DNA of 64,000 nt. It comes from Laspinema olomoucense D3b (GTDB lineage: Bacteria > Cyanobacteriota > Cyanobacteriia > Cyanobacteriales > Laspinemataceae). A program made the translations under genes and the position numbers. The notes beneath the pieces were generated by a model, which did not search any database, was not told the origin of the DNA, and saw only the letters and a list, made by a program, of their open reading frames with translations. The DNA lies in the NCBI RefSeq assembly GCF_025370785.1, contig NZ_JAMXFA010000025.1, positions 1-64,000 on the forward strand. The letters are read 5' to 3'. Below are positions 348-25,797 of the stretch, in pieces. Within the stretch, counting starts at the first letter, position 1. The number at the start of each line of letters is the position of its first letter.

Positions 348-1241
348 ATGTTCGCACCCAAACTCGCATTATTAACCCTTTCAGCGATCGTCCTGTCGAT
401 CGCCCAAGTTCAAGCGCATCAAACCGTAGATCTGGAAATTGGAACCTACCTCGAACAATTCAAAACCGAAAAAGGAGCCAACCGACGAGAAGCAGTAAAA
501 GGATTGCGGCAGATTGGGACTCCCGCAGTTCCCCTACTGATCACCGCATTGCAGGATGCCGATGTAGGAGTCCGAGGAGGGGCCGCATTTGCCTTGGGTT
601 CGATGGGTTCTGATGCAGAATCCGCCATTCCGTCCCTGATTGCTGCCTTAAATGACTCAGCAGAGTCTGTGCGTCTGGATGCTGCCGTGGCACTTAGACG
701 AATTGGCACCCCTGCCGTGGAGGCACTCGCCACTGCCTTGCAACACCCAGAGATAGAAGTTCGTCGGGGTGCTGCCTTTGCCTTAGCGGGAATTGGTGCA
801 ACCGCAGAACCGGCGATCGCCCCCTTAATCAACGCCTTACAGGATCCAGATGAGCGCCTCGCCTGGAATGCTGCAGTTGCCTTGCGCGCAATCGGGTCCC
901 CCGCAGTCCCCGCCCTAAAGGAGGCCCTGACGGATGAAAATCCGCAAGTCCGGAGTTCCGCTGCCTTTGCCTTGGGAAACCCCACTTCCCCCACTACTGC
1001 CAATCTCTCCCCAGTGGCACAAGAGGATGGAGAAGTCCCAGAAATTTGCCGAATGTTGCCGAATCCCTTGTCCCCAGATTTGAGTATCTGTGAAGCAATT
1101 CCGATTCTGGAACGTCCCGAGGAGTTGCGCCAGAATCTGGATCAAGTCAATCCCAACCCCTGTAACTTTTCGCCGAATCCCTGCGAAAGTGCTCCCAATC
1201 AGATTGACTCCTCTGTCACCCCAACTCGCCGCTTGATGTAA
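348..1241 (+). CDS. Secreted HEAT-repeat protein
   Basis: A 297-residue protein starting at ATG 348. The longer open frame would need TTG at 315, and the ATG start leaves a clean signal peptide: a Lys, a hydrophobic core LALLTLSAIVLSIAQ and a VQA cleavage site. After it come about five HEAT/PBS-lyase-type repeats, each with Gly-Thr/Ala-Pro-Ala-Val turns and (V)R(x)GAAFALG helices. They cover roughly residues 35-215. The C-terminal 80 residues are Pro/Asn-rich with several cysteines (EICRMLP, SICEA, NPCNF, NPCES) that could form disulfides outside the cytoplasm. HEAT repeats are protein-binding scaffolds; no enzymatic motif is visible, and the partner is unknown. Confidence 0.8.
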   Translation: MFAPKLALLTLSAIVLSIAQVQAHQTVDLEIGTYLEQFKTEKGANRREAVKGLRQIGTPAVPLLITALQDADVGVRGGAAFALGSMGSDAESAIPSLIAALNDSAESVRLDAAVALRRIGTPAVEALATALQHPEIEVRRGAAFALAGIGATAEPAIAPLINALQDPDERLAWNAAVALRAIGSPAVPALKEALTDENPQVRSSAAFALGNPTSPTTANLSPVAQEDGEVPEICRMLPNPLSPDLSICEAIPILERPEELRQNLDQVNPNPCNFSPNPCESAPNQIDSSVTPTRRLM

Positions 1242-1327
1242 TTCCATCAAGAATTCCTCCCCATTTGTAGGAACGACAGAGTGGTAATAGGAATTTCCTA
1301 GGACGTCAGTAGGGTAAGAAATAGAGA

Positions 1328-1413
1328 GGACAAGAAACCGGGTTTCTTACCCGAATTTGGTGCTCATTACCAGAAATTCGGACAAGAAACCTGGTTTCTA
1401 ACCTCTTGGGTAC
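1328..1413. repeat. Dispersed repeat, copy A
   Basis: This 86-base segment aligns without gaps to 15908-15993. Both begin GGACAAGAAAC and end in GGTTTCTAACCT followed by GTAC. Internally it contains AAGAAACCGGGTTTCTT, an imperfect palindrome, and a second AGAAACCTGGTTTCT. It lies in the intergenic space between two HEAT-repeat genes and codes for nothing recognisable. Confidence 0.65.
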
Positions 1414-1552
1414 TAAGGTCCCTAGGTTGTGTTGATCGCCTTTCCCGCAATCCTGTCTCAAGGCGATCGCCTCTTTCAGAATTGAGTTGTGATGCTTTAT
1501 CCTTGCCCTGGAAATTCGCTATACTCGAAGAGAGTTGAGAGCGAAGGTCCTG

Positions 1553-2155
1553 ATGGGAAATAATCGAAATCAACCTCAACCTGATGATGCCGTTTTGGGG
1601 GGACAACACCCGGCCCCCATAGGTGCTATGGTTTTGGGGGGGTTAGACGGGGTAAAAATGCGCTTGGCTTCGCCTGTGGTAGAATATCGCATTACTGCCC
1701 TGTCAGAAGCGCTTCGGTATGGAATTGATGGATTAGATTTAGTAATTGATTCGTTGCGCGATCGCTCTTGTAAAGTGCGTCATGCAGCTTATTTACTCCT
1801 GGAAAACCGCACAGAAACTCGGGTGCAACACGCTTTACGGTTTTACAATTCTCATCATACTTTAGTCAATCGCATTGTAGAACCCGAACCTGTAGCCAAT
1901 CTTGAGCAGATTGATACCATGATGCAAAATTTGGAACAGGTGGAGGGAAGTAAAATGGGTAAGCTGGTTGACCAATCTCTCAGTTTAGTCCAAACTTCTG
2001 AAGGACAAGATCGCATCAAGCATTACTTATTAAACGGGACTGCTAAACAGAAAGATTATGCCGCTCGTTATTTTAAAGAAAAGGGCCGAAAAGATATTTT
2101 AGTGGAAGCTTATCAACAGCATTATTTAAAGTCAGAAAAATCTTTATTGTCTTAA
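1553..2155 (+). CDS. HEAT-like repeat protein
   Basis: A 200-residue soluble protein starting at ATG 1553; an in-frame TTG at 1535 is less likely. The N-terminal part has DDAVLGGQ followed by a helical HEAT-like unit (VVEYRITALSEALRYGIDGL, then DRSCKVRHAAYLLL). This arrangement recurs in cyanobacterial proteins of unknown role. The C-terminal half is predicted helical and charged, with a KDYAARYFKEKGRKDIL segment resembling another HEAT unit. No catalytic motif or signal peptide is visible. It probably serves as a protein-interaction module. It lies just downstream of another HEAT protein on the same strand but 310 bases away, so it is probably a separate transcript ending at the hairpin at 2191-2224. 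Confidence 0.75.
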   Translation: MGNNRNQPQPDDAVLGGQHPAPIGAMVLGGLDGVKMRLASPVVEYRITALSEALRYGIDGLDLVIDSLRDRSCKVRHAAYLLLENRTETRVQHALRFYNSHHTLVNRIVEPEPVANLEQIDTMMQNLEQVEGSKMGKLVDQSLSLVQTSEGQDRIKHYLLNGTAKQKDYAARYFKEKGRKDILVEAYQQHYLKSEKSLLS

Positions 2156-2190
2156 TTTTTATTTCCGCCTGTGTAGAATGGCTAAAGTTG

Positions 2191-2224
2191 AAAAGCCCTC
2201 AGTGGGATTAAAGTGAGGGCTTTT
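2191..2224. terminator. Bidirectional intrinsic terminator
   Basis: AAAAGCCCTCA pairs with TGAGGGCTTTT around a 12-base loop, giving an A-run on one side and a T-run on the other. It lies between convergent genes (the HEAT-like protein and argH) and can stop transcription from both sides. Confidence 0.85.
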
Positions 2225-2231
2225 CAAGGTT

Positions 2232-3620
2232 TTACACTTGTTTAAACCGACTCTTCGCCTCAGTTAGCGCTTGCCTCACCTGTTCAAACCCGGTTCCCCC
2301 ATAGCTATTGCGGGCGGATACCACTTGTTTGGGTGCGATCGCCGCATAAATATCCGTCTCAAAGGCGGGATGCAATGCTTTCCACTCCTCTAGGGTTAAA
2401 TCTTTTAACAATTTCCCCGCTAATAGAGAGGTTTTAACCACTTTGCCCACCAAATTATAAGCTTCGCGGAAGGGGACGCCTTTGGCGGCTAAATAGTCAG
2501 CAACATCCGTGGCATTCGAGAAGTCTTCGGCAACAGCTTCAGCAAGGCGTTCTTCCCGGAATTTGATGCCTTCACTCATTAAAATGGTCATCGCTTCTAG
2601 GCAAGCTTTGACAGTTTTTACAGCATCAAATAAAGATTCTTTATCTTCTTGCAAGTCTTTATTGTAGGCTAAAGGTAAACCTTTCATCAGCACTAACATT
2701 CCTTGCAAATGTCCGAAAACTCGGCCTGTTTTGCCGCGAACCAATTCGGGAACATCAGGGTTTTTCTTCTGCGGCATGATGCTGGAACCTGTGGCACAGC
2801 TATCAGTGAGGGTGATAAAGCTAAATTCTTGCGATGCCCAGAGAATGACTTCCTCCGATAATCGACTCAGATGCACGAGAATGAGGCTAGAAGCACAGAG
2901 AAACTCGATCGCAAAGTCGCGATCGCTCACCGCATCTAAACTGTTATTATAGAGTCGGCCAAACCCGAGTTCTTGGGCGGTGAATTGCCGATCAATAGGA
3001 AAAGTAGTTCCCGCTAAAGCACCAGCACCTAACGGGCAAATATCCACACGCTGATAAATCTCTCCTAACCGTTCCCAGTCGCGCTGAGCCATTTCAAAAT
3101 AGGCGAGTAAGTGATGCGCCAGACTAATCGGTTGGGCCCGTTGCAAGTGGGTATAACCGGGGATTAAGGTTTCCACATGGCGATCGGCTAGTTCAAGCAA
3201 AACACTTTGAAAGTCGCGAATTTGTTGCCGAATTTGGTGGATTTGGTCCCGGAGGTACAGGCGGGTATCAGTCCCCACTTGATCATTGCGCGATCGCGCC
3301 GTATGGAGTTTTTTCCCCACATCTCCCACCAGTTCCGTCAACCGATGTTCCACCGAAAAATGGACATCTTCGTCATCGATTCCGGGTTTAAATAACCCTT
3401 GGCGATATTCTTGGCCAATTTGTTCAAGTCCCTTAATCAACTTGTCCGCTTCGTCAACCGAGATGATGCCCGTTTTACCAAGCATTTTCGCATGGGCCAT
3501 CGAGCCGGTCAAGTCATACTCAATCAGTTGAATATCAAATCCGATACTCGCATTGAAGCGGGCGATCGCCGGATGTAATGCACCTTCAAATCGTTGACTC
3601 CAGGTTTTTTGTTCTGTCAT
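2232..3620 (-). CDS. argH: Argininosuccinate lyase
   Basis: This enzyme cleaves argininosuccinate to arginine and fumarate, the last step of arginine synthesis, as a cytosolic homotetramer. The product is 462 residues from ATG 3620 (a GTG two codons earlier is possible), the usual family length. Family marks are visible in order: the WSQRFEG start, the SRNDQ motif ([15 protein letters not shown]), HLQRAQP with the catalytic histidine region, and the fumarase/aspartase-superfamily signature [12 protein letters not shown] with the catalytic serine. It ends close to a bidirectional terminator. It is the last gene of a leftward block headed by translation and SRP genes and is likely cotranscribed only with its nearest neighbour, if any. 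Confidence 0.97.
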
Positions 3621-3727
3621 GCTCACTTAACCGCCTTCTTAACTCGCTCACCAACACATTGTTACTCTTTTCCGGCCTGATATTGTTTCTCGTTGGAGAT
3701 AGTATCCCAGACAAATGACCCGTGACT

Positions 3728-3982
3728 TTAACCGCCTCGGAATCCCCGAAATAGATAACCCAGAACCATACCAATGATTAAGGCCCAAATTTGTCCAGTG
3801 GCAACAAAGTTATCCCAGCTATTTTTAATTTGACCCATAATATCCGGGTTGCTGACTTGTTGAGCCAGGACGATCGCCTGCCGTAAAGATTCCCCCATCA
3901 ACCCCCACAGGACTTCGCTGCTGTTGGGAGGGATAGCCAATTTAGCAATTAATTCGTGAATGCTACAAAAAAATATTGTCAT
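3728..3982 (-). CDS. Small single-pass membrane protein, unknown
   Basis: An 84-residue ORF from ATG 3982. A hydrophobic segment (IWALIIGMVLGYLF) near the C-terminus is followed by Arg/Gly residues, a pattern of a C-terminally anchored small membrane protein. The middle contains an amphipathic helix (ESLRQAIVLAQQV) and a SWDNFVATGQ stretch. I do not recognise the family. It lies between the phosphatase gene and argH on the same strand, so it may ride on a shared transcript. Its codon use looks normal for the region. A chance ORF is possible but unlikely given the coherent membrane segment. Confidence 0.6.
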   Translation of the reverse strand: MTIFFCSIHELIAKLAIPPNSSEVLWGLMGESLRQAIVLAQQVSNPDIMGQIKNSWDNFVATGQIWALIIGMVLGYLFRGFRGG

Positions 3983-4192
3983 GAGTTTTTAACACCCGTA
4001 ACCGGGTATGAAGAGGGCTGTTTGCAGTATGCCGGATCAAGTTCACCCTGTAAACGACCCGATCGCAATTCTTCCCTGAACTGGCAACACCGGGCCCGGA
4101 TAAATCCCCCGCCCCTCCTCAAACCCCCTTTCTCCGGATGCGGCAGAGCCACCTCACCAGGAACGGCCTTATTTCTAAAGACCCTCCCCACT

Positions 4193-5650
4193 TCAAACCC
4201 CTCCTCGATTGTCCTTTGCAGACCCCATTTTTGAGCTATCCTCCTCCCCCTTGACCTGCATCACAATCAGGGTCATATCATCCGTATTTTGCGTATCCGG
4301 GCCGATAAAATGCCTAACGCGCTCGAACAGGTGTTCTAAGATAGCTTGGGGCTTTTGGTAATGTTGACAAGCCCATTCCAAGGCAGCAGTCAGGTTTTCC
4401 TCATCAAAGCGATCGCCCACGTGATTACTAGCATCAGTAAACCCGTCAGTGTAATAAATCAGCGTATCTCCAGGCTCTAGCTGAATCTGAGCCTCTTGAT
4501 ACTGCGTATCCGGATCTAATCCAATCAACATCCCCAACGTATCTAACCGCTGAATCGTCCTTGTAGAAGCCTGCCATAACAAAGGCGGATTATGTGCCGC
4601 ATTGCTATAGGACAAAATCCGAGTTTCCGGGTCATACTCCGAATAAAACAGAGTGACAAACCGATGAGAATTCTCCAAATCCGCATACATCACCCGGTTT
4701 AAATGCTGAAGAATTCGTGAGGGGGAATGACCGTTAAGGACCTCTGCCCTTAACATTCCTCGGGTCATCGTCATAATCAACCCGGCAGGTACCCCTTTCC
4801 CCATCACATCGCCAATGACAACGCTCCAGCGTCCGTTCGGTTTTCCGCCTTGATTTTTAGATTGGGCAAAGTCGTGGGTTGTGGGAATAAAATCGTAGTA
4901 ATCTCCCCCCACCCGATTGGCAGTTTCGCAACAGGCAGCCAGTTCAATCCCGTTAATCGTCGGACATTGACGCGGCAGGAGTCGCAGTTGGATTTCTGCC
5001 CCAATTTCTAATTCTCGGTCCAGTCGTTCCTTCTTGCGCAGTTCTACGGTCAACTCATCATTTTCGATCGCCACCGCAGTTTGATCCGCCACTAACCGCA
5101 CCAACTTCTGACGCGTGGGAGTCCAAGTATAGTCCGGGTCCCGGCTGAACACATACAGGCGACCACGTTCCGTATTTTTAACCAAAATGGCGGTGCCAAA
5201 TAACTGCACATCCGACCCCAAATAGGGCGTCACTTGATAATCTAACGCCGAGGGAGGGAGGCTTGAGGCGGCCAAGTTAGAATCATCCATGATTTGACGA
5301 GTCAGGTTTTCTAAAGCCTGCCGAATATCATGGCATTCATGGCCATCCTGACAGTGAAGTTGCTGTAACCTCACTTGACCATTGGGTTTAAACAGGATCA
5401 ATGCTCCCCCATCTGCATCGGTGACCCGACTCGCCACCAGGGGAATCAACTCCAAGAATTGATTCAAATTGTTGAAACTGCGTAGAGCAAATCCCAAGGA
5501 TGACAATAAATCTTGGACTTTCTTTTGTTCCCGATGCAAACGTGCCACCAGTTCTTTGAGGGCAAAGACGGGGGTTACATCTGCGGATGTGCTGCCGTTG
5601 TCGGGTACATCTGGCTGAAATGGCTGTCGAGGGAGAGGCAAAGAAGTCAT
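4193..5650 (-). CDS. GAF-domain SpoIIE/RsbU-type protein phosphatase
   Basis: A 485-residue PP2C-like serine phosphatase that would act on an anti-sigma-factor antagonist or similar phosphoprotein. After a short coiled segment (LVARLHREQKKVQDLL), residues about 45-210 form a GAF sensor domain. A linker helix (NDELTVELRKKERLDRELEIGAEIQLRLLP) leads to the PP2C/SpoIIE domain. Its metal-binding motifs are visible: GGDYYDF, GDVMGKGVPAGL, SNAAHNPPLL, YYTDGFTDA and a final DDMTLIV. No transmembrane segment is present. A STAS protein is encoded at 47.7 kb, but it is far away and atypical, so partnership is not implied. The order ftsY, phosphatase, argH is one I recall from other cyanobacteria. Confidence 0.9.
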   Translation of the reverse strand: MTSLPLPRQPFQPDVPDNGSTSADVTPVFALKELVARLHREQKKVQDLLSSLGFALRSFNNLNQFLELIPLVASRVTDADGGALILFKPNGQVRLQQLHCQDGHECHDIRQALENLTRQIMDDSNLAASSLPPSALDYQVTPYLGSDVQLFGTAILVKNTERGRLYVFSRDPDYTWTPTRQKLVRLVADQTAVAIENDELTVELRKKERLDRELEIGAEIQLRLLPRQCPTINGIELAACCETANRVGGDYYDFIPTTHDFAQSKNQGGKPNGRWSVVIGDVMGKGVPAGLIMTMTRGMLRAEVLNGHSPSRILQHLNRVMYADLENSHRFVTLFYSEYDPETRILSYSNAAHNPPLLWQASTRTIQRLDTLGMLIGLDPDTQYQEAQIQLEPGDTLIYYTDGFTDASNHVGDRFDEENLTAALEWACQHYQKPQAILEHLFERVRHFIGPDTQNTDDMTLIVMQVKGEEDSSKMGSAKDNRGGV

Positions 5651-18099: not shown

Positions 18100-19011
18100 C
18101 TACTCTTCCATAAAATAATCTGAATCTACCTTCTTAATTTCATAACTGACGACAGGGCTAACACCCACGTTATATTCTATCATTAATTGGGCGAGCTTAT
18201 CTCCATCTATTAAAATCACTTTTTTATCAATTCGCTCTACATATTCTTGGGCATCATTGGTGAAACTAGATGAAGTAATAAATATCCCTTTTTTAGCCCG
18301 AAATCCTTCTAAAGCACCCGTAAATTTTTGAATTTCTGGCCGACCAACTGGATTTTGCCAGCGTTTTGCCTGAATATAGATGACATCAAGTCCCAGTCTA
18401 TCTTCATTAATTAAACCATCTACCCCTTCATCCCCACTACGACCAATCACCTGACCCGCATCTTTCCTCGTTCCTCCATATCCCATCTTTACCAACAGGT
18501 CAACCACTAATATTTCAAAAAATCGAGGTGAGCCTGCTTTAATCTGTTCAATTAAATCAGAGGCTAAAGTTTGATTCAGTTTCTGGAATGCCGATTCTAA
18601 CTCTTCTTCAGGGGTGGTGCTAGAGTTGGTATCCGATTCTAAATTAGGAGAGCTTAAATCTTTTTTATTCTGCTCTTGAAATTCTCCAAAAGTGGGGAAT
18701 TGCTGCAAAAATTTTGTGTTGATTTGTGGGGGATGCTCGTTCCAGATTTTTAATCCTTGTTCAGTGATTTTAAAATAACCTCTTTTCGTTGTTTCCAGCA
18801 ATCCTGCCTTGATTAAATAAGTTTTGGCCCAACCCACCCGATTAGCAAACCTCGACTGTTTACCGCTAGGCAAAAGTTTTGTACGTTCTTCGTCAGAAAG
18901 CGCAAAAATTTCACTTAAGCTATCAATCGTTCCCCGTAGTGAATGCTCTTGTTCATCGGCCAATAAATTTAACAAAGGTAGCATAATGGATTGAAAATCT
19001 GGGATAGTCAT
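18100..19011 (-). CDS. Mrr-family restriction endonuclease
   Basis: A 303-residue protein. Residues about 1-90 form the Mrr N-terminal winged-helix domain (MLPLLNLLADEQEHSLRG, RVGWAKTYLIKAGLLE, KRGYFKITEQG). Residues about 165-270 are the Mrr_cat domain of the PD-(D/E)xK nuclease superfamily. Visible there are FFEILVVDLLVKMGYGG, the GRSGDEGVDG aspartate, IQAKRW with the catalytic lysine, FTGAL and GIFITSSSFT. E. coli Mrr cuts modified DNA as a type IV enzyme. It is upstream of nothing recognisable as a methylase, so a modification-dependent role is the natural reading, though substrate is not proven. Confidence 0.93.
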   Translation of the reverse strand: MTIPDFQSIMLPLLNLLADEQEHSLRGTIDSLSEIFALSDEERTKLLPSGKQSRFANRVGWAKTYLIKAGLLETTKRGYFKITEQGLKIWNEHPPQINTKFLQQFPTFGEFQEQNKKDLSSPNLESDTNSSTTPEEELESAFQKLNQTLASDLIEQIKAGSPRFFEILVVDLLVKMGYGGTRKDAGQVIGRSGDEGVDGLINEDRLGLDVIYIQAKRWQNPVGRPEIQKFTGALEGFRAKKGIFITSSSFTNDAQEYVERIDKKVILIDGDKLAQLMIEYNVGVSPVVSYEIKKVDSDYFMEE

Positions 19012-21468: not shown

Positions 21469-21957
21469 CTAGTTATCATTTGTTCGATTCAAATTAAAGT
21501 TTTGAATAGTAAGGTCTGAAGGGAGGGGCATTTTTATTTGTAGAAATACATCAATTTTTATTTCATTATTTTCGCAAATAATGTTAGTGATGTGAACGCC
21601 CCCGTTCTCCGAGGCATTTGTATTCTCAGCTATTTGAGGCCGCGATAAGCTTTTATATCCAGCTTCATCCAACCATTCGGTGACATTTCTCCAATTGTCT
21701 ATCTTTTCGCTCTCCCGACCCACCAGACTTTTGACATATTTATAGAGGGTTGCACATAAGTCAGTTTCCACTCCCCTGGAGTTCTTGCCTAGCTTTTCCG
21801 CAATTTCACAAGGGCTAAAGCCACAAAGTAAGCCCCGCAGGTGCAGCTTTTCCATCGGAGTCAGGCGCTTACCCTTTGCTGAAGCCAGATCCATATAGAG
21901 AGTGTCTAAGTCCCAGTGGTTCTCCGCTTCTACAAATTGTTCATCTGTTACTGCCAT
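21469..21957 (-). CDS. HTH-domain protein divergent from the vWA-phosphatase-kinase operon
   Basis: A 162-residue product from ATG 21957 with AGGGG upstream (a GTG one codon earlier is possible). Residues about 30-80 form a LuxR/sigma-like helix-turn-helix (LTPMEKLHLRGLLCGFSPCEIAEKLGKNSRGVETDL). This HTH type begins many cyanobacterial conflict-system proteins, such as vWA-MoxR-associated ones (from memory). After a charged linker, residues about 110-162 form a small beta-like domain (GVHITNIICENNEIKIDVFLQI). It is transcribed away from the TerY-like operon, with about 220 bases and an inverted repeat between them. A regulator role is therefore plausible but unproven. Confidence 0.75.
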   Translation of the reverse strand: MAVTDEQFVEAENHWDLDTLYMDLASAKGKRLTPMEKLHLRGLLCGFSPCEIAEKLGKNSRGVETDLCATLYKYVKSLVGRESEKIDNWRNVTEWLDEAGYKSLSRPQIAENTNASENGGVHITNIICENNEIKIDVFLQIKMPLPSDLTIQNFNLNRTNDN

Positions 21958-21997
21958 CACTAGGCCCCTTCTTAAATTCCTAACAAAATCCTAGCAT

Positions 21998-22018
21998 AAC
22001 TCCTGACGTTTGTCAGTT
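21998..22018. promoter_or_regulatory. Inverted repeat in the divergent promoter region
   Basis: AACTCCTGACGTTTGTCAGTT is built from CTGAC and GTCAG arms flanked by AACT and TT, about 40 bases upstream of the HTH gene start and 160 bases upstream of the vWA gene. A repressor or activator site is possible; no further evidence. Confidence 0.4.
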
Positions 22019-22178
22019 GAAAACTTATTTTTGTTAGCGTACAGTAAGTAAGAAAGGAACAATACAGTAGTTTTAACCTCGACAAAATAGAGGATGCCAA
22101 CCTTTGTTGTTCCTGAGATTATTTGACCTGAAGATATCTTAAGTAAAACAATAGTCAAATTATATTGAGGACATACAG

Positions 22179-22841
22179 ATGCCTGTAGGAGAACCTGAGC
22201 TTGTTACCAACCTAGAGCCTCGTTGTCCAGTGATTTTATTGCTCGATACATCCGGTTCTATGTGTGGGAAACCCATTGAGCAATTAAATACCGGAATTGC
22301 TACTTTTAAGCAAGAAATTGAAACCGATAATATGGCTACACTTAGGGTAGAAGTTGCTATTATAACTTTCGGTTCTAATGTATCCATGTTTCAAGATTTC
22401 ACAACAGTTGATAACTTTATTATATCAAATCTTACTGCAAATGGAAATACTCCAATGGGAGAAGCAATTAATTATGGTTTAGATGTTTTAGAAGATCGCA
22501 AACAAACCTATAGAAATAAGGGAATTCAATACTATCGTCCTTGGGTTTTTCTAGTGACAGATGGAGCGCCGACTGATTCTTGGCAAAATGCAGCACAGCG
22601 CGTTAGAGACGGTGATCAACAAAAAAAGCACTTGTTTTTTGTTGTGGGGGTACAGGGAGCAGACATGAATATTTTAAGCCAAATTGCTCCTTCAAATCGT
22701 CCACCTTTAATGCTCAATGGCCTCGATTTTAAATCCATGTTCCAATGGATAAGTGCTTCTGTAACACAAGTATCCCACAGTAAACCAGGAGGACAACAAA
22801 CAACACTTCCTCCGATGGGATGGGGTCAAGTTAGTATCTAA
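22179..22841 (+). CDS. TerY-like vWA protein
   Basis: A 220-residue von Willebrand A-domain protein, with TGAGG upstream of ATG 22179. The metal-ion (MIDAS) residues are all present: DTSGS at 23-27, Thr 91 in NTPMGEA, and Asp 128 in FLVTDGAPTD. TerY belongs to the Ter stress-response network, in which the vWA domain binds a partner. Here it is the first gene of a tight operon: 18 bases to the phosphatase gene, then 3 bases to the kinase gene. This is the order vWA, PP2C, kinase of the TerY-P triad. No signal peptide or transmembrane segment. The C-terminus is Pro/Gln-rich. Confidence 0.93.
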   Translation: MPVGEPELVTNLEPRCPVILLLDTSGSMCGKPIEQLNTGIATFKQEIETDNMATLRVEVAIITFGSNVSMFQDFTTVDNFIISNLTANGNTPMGEAINYGLDVLEDRKQTYRNKGIQYYRPWVFLVTDGAPTDSWQNAAQRVRDGDQQKKHLFFVVGVQGADMNILSQIAPSNRPPLMLNGLDFKSMFQWISASVTQVSHSKPGGQQTTLPPMGWGQVSI

Positions 22842-22858
22842 ACTCTTAAGGATGTTTT

Positions 22859-24007
22859 ATGACCTGGAAAGCTATAGCAGAGTCAGCAATAGGAACAAGT
22901 CACCAACGACAACAAATAGTCTGTCAAGATGCCGGAGATTATGTAGTCGTTGGCAACATCCTTATTGGCGCAGTAGCTGATGGGGCTGGTAGCGCCACAT
23001 ATTCTGACATTGGCTCTAAATTGGCAGTTAAATCGGTAATATCCTATTTAACTGCATGGGTTAAATGGCGAAAAAACCAGTTTAAATTTAAAAGTTTAAA
23101 CTTTCCCCTATCTGAACAAGAAGCTGAAAAAATTTTTATTAAAACTCTAAGTAAAGTTTTATCAGAACTTAATGAAGAGACGAAAAAAGGGTATGCGCTA
23201 AAAGACTTAGCTTGTACTTTATTAGTAGTTATTGCTACTCCTCAATGGATAGCTGCTATGCAAATTGGCGATGGGTTTATTGTAATTAGAGCAGAAGAAT
23301 CAGACACTTATCAACTATTGTTCCAGCCTGAAGAAAAAGAATATCCTAACGTAAGTACATTTGTAACCTCTAATGATGTTTATAATAAAATGCGGTTTCG
23401 TATAATATCAGGCCAGCAAAAATTCATCTCAGTTTCAACTGATGGTTTAGAAAGATTGGCAATTGACATGAAAGACTTGAGCAATTGCATGGCATCAAAT
23501 AATTTTTTTAAGCCCTTTGAAGAAGGGATTACCACTAGAAGTCAACAAGAGGAAACTGAGTCTTTGCAACATTGGTTAAATTCTCCAGAAGTCAATGCTA
23601 AGACAGATGATGACAAAACTTTACTGGTTTGTCTGTTTGAATCTGGTCCTTCTGCCGGTCCTATATTTCATAATAAAAATTTTTACATTGATTTCTACAT
23701 CCAAATTTTTATTGCTAGTGTAACAGCGGGATTTATTTGGAACTTCCAATATCATTATTCGCAATGGGTCCTTGGTAATTTTGCATCAGCTATTTTTATC
23801 TGGACTTTTATCATATTGTTGTCTATATATTATAATTGGAAATTTTTTGAAGTTATCAATTCAACTAATATTTCGGGCAAATATACAAACAACAAATTTC
23901 ATATTTTATTACAACTAATGACTTGTGTGCTGGGTGCATTTATAGGCGCTTTAATTTTATATTTTATGTGGATTGGTTTTTTACATCCCCATTTTTCGAT
24001 TAAATAA
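22859..24007 (+). CDS. PP2C-type phosphatase with C-terminal membrane segments
   Basis: A 382-residue protein, AAGGA upstream of ATG 22859. Residues about 1-265 are a PP2C fold of the compact PP2C_2 type: VCQDAGDYVV, GAVADGAGSATYSD (replacing the classic DGHGG), AMQIGDGFIVI, VSTDGLERLAIDM and a final KTDDDKTLLVCL carry the metal-binding acids. Residues about 282-380 hold three hydrophobic segments (IFIASVTAGFIWNF, FASAIFIWTFIILLSIYY, LQLMTCVLGAFIGALILYFMW), so the phosphatase is membrane-anchored. It is the middle gene of the triad and presumably reverses the action of the kinase encoded next. Confidence 0.92.
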   Translation: MTWKAIAESAIGTSHQRQQIVCQDAGDYVVVGNILIGAVADGAGSATYSDIGSKLAVKSVISYLTAWVKWRKNQFKFKSLNFPLSEQEAEKIFIKTLSKVLSELNEETKKGYALKDLACTLLVVIATPQWIAAMQIGDGFIVIRAEESDTYQLLFQPEEKEYPNVSTFVTSNDVYNKMRFRIISGQQKFISVSTDGLERLAIDMKDLSNCMASNNFFKPFEEGITTRSQQEETESLQHWLNSPEVNAKTDDDKTLLVCLFESGPSAGPIFHNKNFYIDFYIQIFIASVTAGFIWNFQYHYSQWVLGNFASAIFIWTFIILLSIYYNWKFFEVINSTNISGKYTNNKFHILLQLMTCVLGAFIGALILYFMWIGFLHPHFSIK

Positions 24008-24009
24008 CT

Positions 24010-25308
24010 ATGATTAACTACCATGATAGTAAAGGTAAATCTGTTACTTTAATAAAACTTCTTGCGAAGAGTGGAGAGGGAGAAATTTGGACAACTAACC
24101 GTAAAGGATTGCTCGCAAAAATTTACCATTCTCCCAATTCAGTCCGTCGAAACAAGGTGGAGGCTATGATTGCAAATCCCCCGAAAGATCCAACCAAAAT
24201 TCAAAATCATATTTCAATTGTTTGGCCAAAGGATTTGCTGCTGAAAACCAGTGGAAGTTCTTTTGTAGGCTTTTTAATGCCTTACATTGTAAATTCTAAA
24301 GAGCTTTTATGTATTTATAATCCAAAGCTTCGTAAAAAACAAGCTCCTCGTGTTAACTGGTATGGTTTACATATTATTGCTAAAAATGTCGCATCAATTC
24401 TTCAGGCACTTCATGCCAAAAACTATATTATTGGAGATATGAAGTCGCAAAATATCCTGGTCAATGAGCGAGGCCAGGTTTCTATTATTGATACAGATTC
24501 TTTTCAAATTACCGATCCTCAAGGAAAGGTTTATAGGTGTTCAGTCGGTTCAGAAGGATTTACTCCACCTGAATTGATTGCAAAAGAGCTATCCACCATG
24601 ACTCAAAATCGATTCCATGATCGATTTAGATTAGCCGTCATAATTCACTATTTGCTGTTTGGATATCATCCTTTTATGGGCCGGTGGATAGGAATTGGAG
24701 ACCCTCCTGGTTTGGATGAATCTATTAGTAAAGGATATTGGCCTTATGGTTTAAATAGTAAGTTTACCCCCAGTCAAAATACGATTCCGCTTCATGTAGT
24801 TCATCCAGAAATAAAAAAATGTTTCCTCAAATGCTTTAATGAGGGCCACACTTCTCCAAGTTCTCGACCCTCGCCACAAGATTGGGTTAATGCTTTAGAA
24901 CAAGGGATTTCTGACTTAGAGACTTGTAGGAAAGTAGGGAATCATTCTTACAGTATAACTTATGGTCGTTGCTATTGGTGTGAACGCGCTAATCATCTGG
25001 GAACGGATATCTTTCCAAGTGTTACGAATCCCATTAAACCTCCTAAATCTAACCAAAAAATTTCATCCCTGTTACGGAGACTACCACCACTGCCACGGTT
25101 ACAGCCCCTCCCACAATTACGACTGCTACAAAGGCTCCCACCACTGCCACCACTCCCACAACAACTATATTTAAAAGTAACGTGGAAATCAGGACTCGTA
25201 GTAACCCTCTTGATTTTAATTATAGGATGGCAACTGAATGTGTTTGGATTGAAAAACGAAATTTGCACAGAATGGGGTAATAATTTGCCCGAAAAACTTT
25301 GTCGATAG
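24010..25308 (+). CDS. Atypical protein kinase of a TerY-P triad
   Basis: A 432-residue kinase. The glycine loop is AKSGEGEIW (19-27). Lys 37 (LLAKIY) would bind ATP. The catalytic loop is GDMKSQN (142-148), in which HRD is replaced by IGD, and the DFG motif is replaced by DTD at 161-163. Residues about 304-325 have a C-x-x..H..CxxC zinc-ribbon-like cluster (TCRKVGNHSYS, RCYWCER). A Pro/Leu-rich linker (residues about 355-380) precedes a C-terminal transmembrane helix (GLVVTLLILIIGW). The start overlaps no upstream site, three bases after the phosphatase stop, so translation is probably coupled. Its target is unknown. Confidence 0.9.
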   Translation: MINYHDSKGKSVTLIKLLAKSGEGEIWTTNRKGLLAKIYHSPNSVRRNKVEAMIANPPKDPTKIQNHISIVWPKDLLLKTSGSSFVGFLMPYIVNSKELLCIYNPKLRKKQAPRVNWYGLHIIAKNVASILQALHAKNYIIGDMKSQNILVNERGQVSIIDTDSFQITDPQGKVYRCSVGSEGFTPPELIAKELSTMTQNRFHDRFRLAVIIHYLLFGYHPFMGRWIGIGDPPGLDESISKGYWPYGLNSKFTPSQNTIPLHVVHPEIKKCFLKCFNEGHTSPSSRPSPQDWVNALEQGISDLETCRKVGNHSYSITYGRCYWCERANHLGTDIFPSVTNPIKPPKSNQKISSLLRRLPPLPRLQPLPQLRLLQRLPPLPPLPQQLYLKVTWKSGLVVTLLILIIGWQLNVFGLKNEICTEWGNNLPEKLCR

Positions 25309-25322
25309 GTATTGTTAATAGC

Positions 25323-25469
25323 TCAAGTTTCTCCTGAATCCTGAATTGGCACTAGAACCCCGATCGCATTCAGCACTTCTGGAATATTTCCTTTCAGTCC
25401 CCGGGCAAATTCTAACGCCAATTCCCCCGCTTTCAGAATATCCAAAAGTGATGCACTATCCCGCGACAT
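25323..25469 (-). pseudogene. HepT (HEPN toxin) remnant with an internal deletion
   Basis: A 48-residue frame from ATG 25469 to TGA at 25323-25325, overlapping the end of the MntA-like gene by 14 bases, as real hepT genes usually do. The N-terminus MSRDSASLLDILKAGELALEF matches the start of HepT toxins, and IPEVLNAIGVLVP resembles their C-terminus. The middle with the Rx4HxY catalytic motif is absent, so the toxin is probably inactive. The short size escapes normal gene calling. Confidence 0.7.
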
Positions 25470-25797
25470 AAATCATCTGTGCTGTTTCTAAGATTTCTTG
25501 CTGACGAATCCAATTAGGGCTTTGCTCGATCGCCTTTTTGGTGATTAAATCAACCGGACGCTGTAGCCAAGTTTCCAGTTCTCGTTTCATCCGCACCAGT
25601 TCTAGCAATCCCCAACCCGCATTCGACTGAAATTTTACCATCACATCAATATCACTATCGGGCCGAAAATCCTCCCGCAAAACTGACCCAAACAAGTAAA
25701 ATTCCTCAACCTTCCATCGCTGACAAAATTCAGCCATTTTTGCAGGAGGCAGTTCGATAGGGAGTTCTCGATTTAACGGCAATTTCTGTATAGCCAT
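25456..25797 (-). CDS. MntA-like nucleotidyltransferase antitoxin
   Basis: A 113-residue minimal nucleotidyltransferase with GAGGGGAT before ATG 25797. The signature GSVLREDFRPDSDIDV (residues about 37-52) carries the GSxxR and the DxD metal motif. In HepT-MntA toxin-antitoxin systems the antitoxin adds AMP units to the toxin. The overlapping hepT partner here has lost its catalytic middle, so this may be an orphan antitoxin. It is transcribed leftward toward the end of the kinase operon, and the two genes are convergent. Confidence 0.9.
   Translation of the reverse strand: MAIQKLPLNRELPIELPPAKMAEFCQRWKVEEFYLFGSVLREDFRPDSDIDVMVKFQSNAGWGLLELVRMKRELETWLQRPVDLITKKAIEQSPNWIRQQEILETAQMIYVAG

What the first reader, a model, noticed from the sequence alone, without database searches (positions are those of the whole stretch)
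21469..25308. TerY-P type triad with a divergent HTH gene: candidate defence or stress system
The operon vWA (TerY-like), PP2C with membrane anchor, atypical kinase is tight (18 and 3 bases). The kinase has IGD for HRD and DTD for DFG and ends in a transmembrane helix, so kinase and phosphatase are both membrane-bound. A divergent HTH gene of a type seen in conflict systems and a CTGAC...GTCAG inverted repeat between the two suggest regulation. The TerY-P triad has been described from comparative genomics; the HTH partner, with the membrane anchors, may be a new variant.
Basis: partly seen in the sequence, partly recalled or inferred. Interest (0 to 1): 0.75.

Follow-up and report, generated by a model that had tools for sequence, protein, structure and literature searches.

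The report
Shared switch for swappable defence operons
A small DNA-binding protein and a conserved set of repeated DNA sites sit head-to-head with many different, exchangeable gene sets in cyanobacteria, several of them resembling antiviral systems; the kinase-phosphatase set found here is one of them, and the pair is probably their common switch.

Summary
In detail: a vWA-PP2C-kinase operon with a divergent HTH gene, in an Oscillatoria-like cyanobacterium.
The surprise is the HTH gene. It is a conserved family, divergent from its upstream neighbour in 101 of 105 loci (control 188 of 539), and the facing operon varies: TerY-P triads, STK_OB triads, E1/E2/JAB, AAA, helicase, KAP-NTPase and unknown sets. 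A model trained without this genome finds one strong site in it (E 3e-9); in 99 genomes 45 of 45 strong sites lie beside an HTH match. Recognition-helix residues and operator letters agree in 99 of 99 loci, over only three evolutionary changes. In two genome pairs the regulator, operator and flanks match at 90-99% while the operon is replaced.
HTH-linked triads are those with a membrane-anchored PP2C (11 of 11; 1 of 29 others). Defence function and direction of regulation remain inferred.

The parts
21469..21960 (-). HTH regulator gene (163 aa from GTG 21960; ATG at 21957). HTH domain at residues about 15-103, then a low-confidence predicted beta hairpin (120-140).
   Evidence: ORF; no Pfam or NCBIfam family above its cut-off, no PADLOC family; 30-sequence alignment with 25 invariant columns; AlphaFold model, pLDDT about 90 for residues 11-100; VIA-align rows mostly NarL/LuxR-type domains, best Z 7.1
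21974..22018 (+). Operator array matched by model R1: direct repeats CCTAAC 21979-21984, CCTAGC 21990-21995, CCTGAC 22002-22007 (11 and 12 bp apart) and inverted GTCAG 22012-22016
   Evidence: E 3.4e-9; the only other match up to E 1 in the 7.0-Mb genome is at 0.25 (150 of 2010 first-look candidates scored); same array in aligned relatives
22035..22045 (+). -10-like promoter element of the operon (TAGCGTACAGT), inferred
   Evidence: pattern TA[GA][CT]TTANNNT, chosen after seeing the alignment, in 33 of 99 loci, 27 of its 35 matches 16-19 nt after the operator, shuffled mean 1.4 loci; the window copy deviates by one letter and was read by eye
22179..22841 (+). vWA (TerY-like) protein, 220 aa; MIDAS motif DTSGS...T...D intact
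   Evidence: Pfam VWA 2.1e-15; motif read from the sequence
22859..24007 (+). PP2C phosphatase, 382 aa, with C-terminal TM-like segments (305-323, 349-367)
   Evidence: PP2C_2 5e-48 over residues 11-241; hydropathy
24010..25308 (+). Ser/Thr kinase, 432 aa: IGD and DTD motifs, C/H/C/C zinc-ribbon motif from about residue 306, proline-rich linker, TM-like segment 388-406
   Evidence: Pkinase 5.6e-12; motifs; hydropathy

Best explanation
The HTH gene encodes a local transcription regulator that binds its own operator array, between it and the operon, and controls both itself and whichever operon, mostly of defence type, lies opposite. In this genome that operon is a TerY-P triad. Shown by sequence: the divergent arrangement, the conserved array, strong array matches found only beside HTH matches, agreement of array letters with the recognition helix, the exchange of operons behind a constant regulator and operator, and the link between HTH and a membrane-anchored PP2C. 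Inferred: (1) the HTH binds the array, cooperatively; (2) it mainly represses, because the array lies 17-61 nt before the HTH start and its last unit lies near where the operon's -35 should be; (3) infection or damage relieves this; (4) the kinase and PP2C, both membrane-anchored, form a phosphorylation switch acting through the vWA protein and the zinc ribbon, which triggers or restrains an antiphage or stress response. Because the regulator and operator stay while operons change, the pair works like a socket into which new defence operons are recombined.
For: Orientation: upstream neighbour divergent in 101 of 105 non-redundant HTH loci (exceptions L125, L127, L173, L213; 3 more at contig edges not counted), against 188 of 539 control genes of the same loci, p 5.5e-41 (mechanical ORFs). 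Operator: present in the 36 of 36 non-redundant upstream regions aligned (L127, with no array seen, and the truncated L141 were left out beforehand, L138 was too short). One strong site in the window genome. 45 of 45 matches with E<1e-3 in 99 genomes lie within 1 kb of an HTH match; many of these are training loci or near copies, but G000, G002:C470, G017:C88, G084:C198 and G015:C163 are not. 76 of 80 named loci at E<=0.005, and 41 of 45 of those unlike the training sequences. Coupling: recognition residues [TS]D go with CTG units in 57 of 57 loci, other residues lack them in 42 of 42. Cassette exchange: G011 vs G012, 98.6% identity over 5.26 kb through HTH, operator and promoter, then two different triads, then 98.1% over 0.8 kb; G011:C159 (helicase) vs G013:C113 (triad), HTH plus operator 96.5% over 658 columns, flanks 90-97%. 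Operon content: STK_OB 1e-108, IetA-like 1.5e-33, helicase 5e-91, E1-E2 5e-21; PDC-M09A 1.5e-31, QatA-like 5e-35. 10 of 17 scanned operon proteins match PADLOC at E<=1e-10, against 2 of 20 random neighbours from the other side of the HTH. The chlB-rph site holds different defence-like genes in sister genomes. On the HTH tree the zinc-ribbon triad label needs 9 changes for 10 rows.
Against: No expression, binding or phage data exist. The window's own triad matches PADLOC only through generic kinase models (best 1.4e-9), so defence for this triad rests on kinship and company. The recognition-helix match reflects only 3 changes on the tree; a test on independent pairs had 1 pair on supported branches. 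The 17 operon proteins were picked by hand, and 7 of them had no match at 1e-10. 55 of 107 HTH loci face operons that I could not class. The genome searches for the operator scored only 150 (own genome) or up to 63 (each of 99) of roughly 600-4700 first-look candidates, so other sites may be missed. 8 of 12 weaker matches (E 1e-3 to 1e-2) are not beside an HTH match. Two of seven strong STK_OB kinases have no HTH beside them. Taken together, operon labels are somewhat clustered on the HTH tree (39 changes, shuffled mean 49.5, as low in 0 of 200), so part of the association is inherited. Repression rather than activation is a guess from position.
Confidence: 0.75

Rival explanations
1. The HTH is an activator that raises expression of the opposite operon on a signal, rather than a repressor.
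For: NarL/LuxR-type domains, which the model resembles, are often activators (recalled), and the last operator unit lies close to where the operon's -35 should be (inferred).
Against: The array lies 17-61 nt upstream of the HTH start, which fits autorepression. Two regulators of defence operons whose abstracts I saw (CapS; RptR with three direct repeats) repress.
Confidence: 0.3
2. The repeat array is a recombination site used to swap operons, not an operator.
For: In two genome pairs the exchange begins just after the array or just after the promoter.
Against: No recombinase was seen among the triad, HTH and two flanking genes scanned in the window. The array keeps a similar place before the HTH start and agrees with the recognition residues in 99 of 99 loci. 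It also precedes some fused HTH genes (G017:C88, G084:C198). Homology in the constant part is enough for ordinary recombination.
Confidence: 0.05
3. The triad is a metal or tellurite stress module, as the name TerY suggests, and the HTH is a stress regulator.
For: TerY-P has been hypothesised to be a metal-sensing phosphorylation switch (passage in PMC11090510); the zinc-ribbon motif is present.
Against: No TerD family match in the window genome. The same HTH family faces operons with E1/E2/JAB, helicase, STK_OB or KAP-NTPase genes. The site holds other defence-like genes in sister genomes.
Confidence: 0.12
4. The HTH protein is a direct substrate of the triad's kinase (as CapS is of CapK), a private signalling loop.
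For: Kinase, phosphatase and HTH are neighbours; CapK/CapS is a precedent (abstract).
Against: The same HTH family faces many operons in which no kinase was found, so this cannot be the general mechanism; it could be a local addition.
Confidence: 0.15

Closest known systems
TerY-P triad (Anantharaman et al. 2012, known to me through passages of PMC11090510; the original is not held)
   Same: vWA, PP2C and Ser/Thr kinase fused to a C-terminal zinc ribbon, in one operon
   Different: PP2C is membrane-anchored, with a divergent HTH gene and operator. No TerD match in the genome.
STK_OB / TerY-P-like antiphage module (Gao et al. 2020, not read; cited in a passage of PMC11090510)
   Same: Same three enzyme types; STK_OB-like kinases lie beside the same HTH family in 5 of 7 strong cases
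   Different: The window kinase does not match the STK_OB model up to E 0.01 and has a zinc-ribbon motif instead
BrxR / CapW, WYL-domain regulators of diverse defence systems (passages of PMC9122601; PMC9122588 in listing only)
   Same: One regulator family next to many different defence systems
   Different: No WYL match; a different HTH; an operator of three direct plus one inverted repeat; head-to-head with the operon
RptR (abstract of PMC12255303)
   Different: Binding site TAGCTA, linked to type I restriction in the abstract; relatedness in sequence not tested here
CapK/CapS (abstract of PMC13373217)
   Different: STAS-like repressor plus its own kinase; no STAS match here
NTP-dependent conflict systems of Kaur et al. 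2020 (passages of PMC7159879)
   Same: Kinase with zinc ribbon or TM helices, PP2C and standalone vWA reported in 10% of GAP1-N2 neighbourhoods, in actinobacteria
   Different: No such HTH or operator in the passages seen

Membership tests
TerY-P triad | TerY-like vWA gene | tested here: met
   Pfam VWA 2.1e-15; MIDAS residues intact by reading
TerY-P triad | PP2C-type phosphatase gene in the same operon | tested here: met
   PP2C_2 5e-48; 17- and 2-base gaps
TerY-P triad | Ser/Thr kinase with C-terminal zinc ribbon | tested here: met
   Pkinase 5.6e-12; C/H/C/C motif in 39 of 39 kinases compared; motif only, no structure
TerY-P triad | Company of Ter (tellurite) proteins | tested here: not met
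   No TerD (PF02342) match in the genome; the CoCoNuT paper reports TerY-P with other systems (passages), so I do not treat this as defining
STK_OB (Gao-type TerY-P-like) antiphage system | Kinase matching the STK_OB model | tested here: not met
   17 PADLOC models listed for the window kinase up to E 0.01, PDLC02223 not among them
CoCoNuT-linked TerY-P | CoCoNuT genes (CnuB/C/H/E) beside the triad | not tested
   No CoCoNuT model was run; of the flanking genes only the Mrr and nucleotidyltransferase genes were scanned
BrxR/CapW WYL regulators | WYL domain | tested here: not met
   Pfam scan of the HTH protein lists no WYL match up to E 0.1
NarL/FixJ/LuxR-type HTH fold | Four-helix HTH domain | tested here: inconclusive
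   No Foldseek match under E 0.001; the 50 VIA-align rows shown are mostly of this type at Z 5.8-7.1, which is middling
Transcription regulator of the opposite operon (function) | Binding to the array and effect on transcription | not testable with these tools
   Only sequence-level coupling is shown

The most novel reading that the evidence does not exclude
In cyanobacteria one regulator family with its operator forms a standard socket: a fixed switch behind which defence operons of unrelated mechanism are exchanged by recombination. Any operon found behind the array, including the many of unknown type here, would then be a defence system, so the operator itself can be used to discover new ones. 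STAND proteins carrying the same HTH as a fused domain could act through the same kind of site.
Probability: 0.5. Interest if true: 0.87.

Novelty: new variant of a known kind. Interest (0 to 1): 0.73.

Why it matters
How bacteria keep potentially self-harming defence genes quiet until needed is an open question; the common regulators met in the papers seen here are few (BrxR/CapW, CapS, RptR). This would add one for cyanobacteria, with an operator that can be searched for. It suggests how a cell can take on a new defence operon already under control: the regulator and promoter stay and the operon is swapped. It also gives a guilt-by-operator route to unknown defence systems, such as the repeated 116/170/260-aa set, and defines a TerY-P variant with a membrane-bound phosphatase.

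Tried and rejected
Rejected: 'kinase is atypical' (family norm). 'HTH belongs to the triad' (it faces many operons). An RNA element in the region (no Rfam match at gathering scores). A viral or plasmid home of the HTH: no phage match; one plasmid match, under an annotated NB-ARC protein at 34%; no relative found in IMG/VR contigs. Foldseek alone gave nothing significant. The recognition-helix test has too few independent events for a sign test. One very long open frame among the fused-HTH hits proved to be a run of N and was dropped.

Rows dropped: 9 of the 49 kinase matches with E<1e-50 were not fetched; none lies beside an HTH match by coordinates. One fetched locus (L099) gave no kinase ORF, leaving 39. 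Four of the 33 no-HTH kinases had no PP2C found and are not in the 29; one of the 29 (L075) has a split, short PP2C. L127, L141 and L138 were left out of the operator alignment: no array seen, truncated gene, too little sequence. Duplicate HTH sequences were merged before counting; 8 of 107 loci had no operator call and are not in the 99. Operon labels come from BLAST hits and gene lengths and are rough: the M09A label rests on lengths, with one member tested, and the E1E2JAB and AAA labels of the most diverged HTH group are unsure. Genes were called mechanically (longest ORFs), not with a gene finder. At the chlB-rph site G001, G005 and G007 could not be read through (contig ends or no match).

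Novelty searches: the papers listed do not, by title or start of abstract, describe this HTH or operator; the library is open-access only.
Full report
What is there. The window lies in a 7.0-Mb genome; the nearest named relative of its HTH is from Oscillatoria sp. HE19RPO (97%). The triad proteins keep their key residues by direct reading: DTSGS...T...D in the vWA, the aspartates of the PP2C, and IGDMKSQN and DTD in the kinase. The kinase carries a C/H/C/C cluster after the catalytic domain, as do all 39 kinases compared. By the description in PMC11090510 (passages) this is a TerY-P triad.

The HTH family. The 163-aa HTH protein has no Pfam or NCBIfam family above cut-off and no PADLOC match up to E 0.01. 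It has matches in 52 of 99 genomes, the window's included, either as a standalone gene, mostly 155-185 aa, or as the N-terminus of large proteins. Of ten such fused proteins scanned, seven show an NB-ARC, NACHT or nSTAND1 NTPase, two show WD40 repeats in the part of the list printed, and one shows no family. Thirty standalone members align with 25 invariant columns. The AlphaFold model is confident for residues 11-100, and its structural neighbours are mostly NarL/LuxR-type DNA-binding domains, best Z 7.1, which is middling. A scan of named genomes gave 162 relatives, of which 80 were kept: by title 78 are cyanobacteria and two are Candidatus Thiomargarita nelsonii.

Head-to-head with changing operons. 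In 105 non-redundant standalone HTH loci with an upstream neighbour, that neighbour is divergent in 101. Among other genes of the same loci it is 188 of 539. The operons differ. In the 107 loci the rough labels are: 10 zinc-ribbon triads, 8 STK_OB-like triads, 12 AAA/IetA-like, 8 of PDC-M09A-like layout, 7 of a 116/170-aa type, 6 E1/E2/JAB-like, 1 Hsp70-vWA and 55 unclassed. Family scans support several of these: STK_OB 1e-108 and 1e-60, IetA-like 1.5e-33, a helicase model 5e-91, E1-E2 5e-21; PDC-M09A 1.5e-31, QatA-like 5e-35, mad8/HerA-like 3e-18, PD-T4-6-like; ThiF, a weak E2 match and JAB; tubulin-like and KAP NTPase. Of 17 operon proteins scanned against PADLOC (10, 7 of the 10), 10 match at E<=1e-10. 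Of 20 random proteins of 250-950 aa from the other side of the HTH, 2 do, one of them a Cas12f/TnpB-like match. The 17 were chosen by hand.

The operator. A sequence-only model trained on 34 regions, none from G000 or the G002 triad locus (though G004 and G006 of the same genus are in it), finds one strong site in the window genome, at 21974-22018 (E 3.4e-9; next 0.25; 150 of 2010 first-look candidates scored). In 99 genomes 45 of 45 matches below 1e-3 lie within 1 kb of an HTH match; of 12 weaker ones 4 do. In the 80 named loci 76 have it at E<=0.005; among 45 unlike the training set, 41. The four misses (L222, L225, L231, L234) show a recognisable array by eye. A -10-like element follows in 33 of 99 loci, with 27 of its 35 matches at 16-19 nt, against 1.4 loci expected from shuffles.

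HTH and operator change together. The three recognition-helix residues and the repeat letters agree without exception in 99 loci: [TS]D with CTG units 57 of 57, other residues without CTG units 42 of 42. On the tree each trait changes only three times, so this is suggestive of direct contact but rests on few events.

Operons are swapped behind the switch. Genomes G011 and G012 are 98.6% identical over 5.26 kb, running through a flanking gene, the HTH, the operator and the promoter. They then carry two different triads (zinc-ribbon type and STK_OB-like type), and become 98.1% identical again over 0.8 kb beyond them. In a second pair, G011:C159 and G013:C113, HTH and operator match at 96.5% over 658 columns and parts of the flanks at 90-97%, but one has a helicase gene and the other a triad. 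On the HTH tree the zinc-ribbon triad label needs 9 changes for 10 rows, about what shuffling gives (mean 9.7), although all labels together are somewhat clustered (39 changes, shuffled mean 49.5). The window site itself, between chlB and rph, holds a triad with HTH in G000 and G002, an NB-ARC-like protein (by reading) in G003 and G006, and in G004 an AAA protein matching restriction models (2e-33) beside a 607-aa protein with no match; in G009, G015 and G017, from outside the genus, chlB and rph are 0.4-0.6 kb apart. Three further genomes of the genus could not be read through.

The triad variant. All 11 zinc-ribbon triads beside an HTH (10 intact, 1 remnant in L065) have a PP2C with a C-terminal TM-like segment. 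Of 29 without HTH whose PP2C could be examined, one does (L080, where 504 bp upstream show no array by eye). On the kinase tree the HTH-linked triads fall in two groups (3 changes of the HTH label, 2 of the PP2C anchor). A TM-like segment in the kinase tail is common to the family (36 of 39).

Mechanism and limits. The most likely working is local control, probably repression, of HTH and operon by cooperative binding to the array, relieved on infection or stress. The triad itself would act as a membrane-bound phosphorylation switch. Binding, direction, signal and defence are inferred. The defence evidence for this triad is resemblance to STK_OB modules, the site, and the company kept by its regulator; its own proteins match PADLOC only through general kinase models.

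Known context. BrxR-family regulators are reported beside diverse defence systems (passages), CapK/CapS upstream of diverse immune operons (abstract), and RptR binds three direct repeats (abstract). A shared regulator of many defence operons is therefore a known kind of thing. This family, its operator, its head-to-head rule and the swapping behind it were not seen in the listings.

Noticed in passing
window 18100-19011 (-): A Mrr-type type IV restriction enzyme next to chlB (PADLOC mREase_IV 1.8e-93), again pointing to a defence-rich site.
   Followed up: partly
window 25456-25797 (-): A small Pol-beta-type nucleotidyltransferase (Pfam NTP_transf_2 1.5e-16) beside the triad, also present near rph in G001, G002 and G004.
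   Followed up: no
L248:4275-5726 (-), L081:10421-11773 (+): Triads without the standalone HTH can instead have a divergent protein that looks like an HTH fused to a STAND NTPase, judged from the sequence; perhaps an alternative regulator.
   Followed up: no
L169:5120-6806 (-), also L171, L182, L188, L209, L212, L219: A recurring operon of about 116, 170 and 260 aa behind the array. The 259-aa protein of L169 has no Pfam or PADLOC match; a candidate unknown defence system.
   Followed up: partly
L196:4944-6839 (-), similar in L195, L197: A recurring set of small proteins (142, 113, 203, 136 aa) followed by an IetA-like AAA ATPase behind the array; the 203-aa protein has no Pfam match.
   Followed up: no
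L210, L222 (Candidatus Thiomargarita nelsonii): The HTH family occurs in a giant sulphur bacterium outside cyanobacteria; L210 has a strong operator match (E 8e-7) and L222 only weak ones, which suggests transfer of regulator plus operator.
   Followed up: no
L128 and L133 (G013:C19, G011:C117): A second operator match about 0.36-0.39 kb from the HTH match, on the side of the opposite operon.
   Followed up: no
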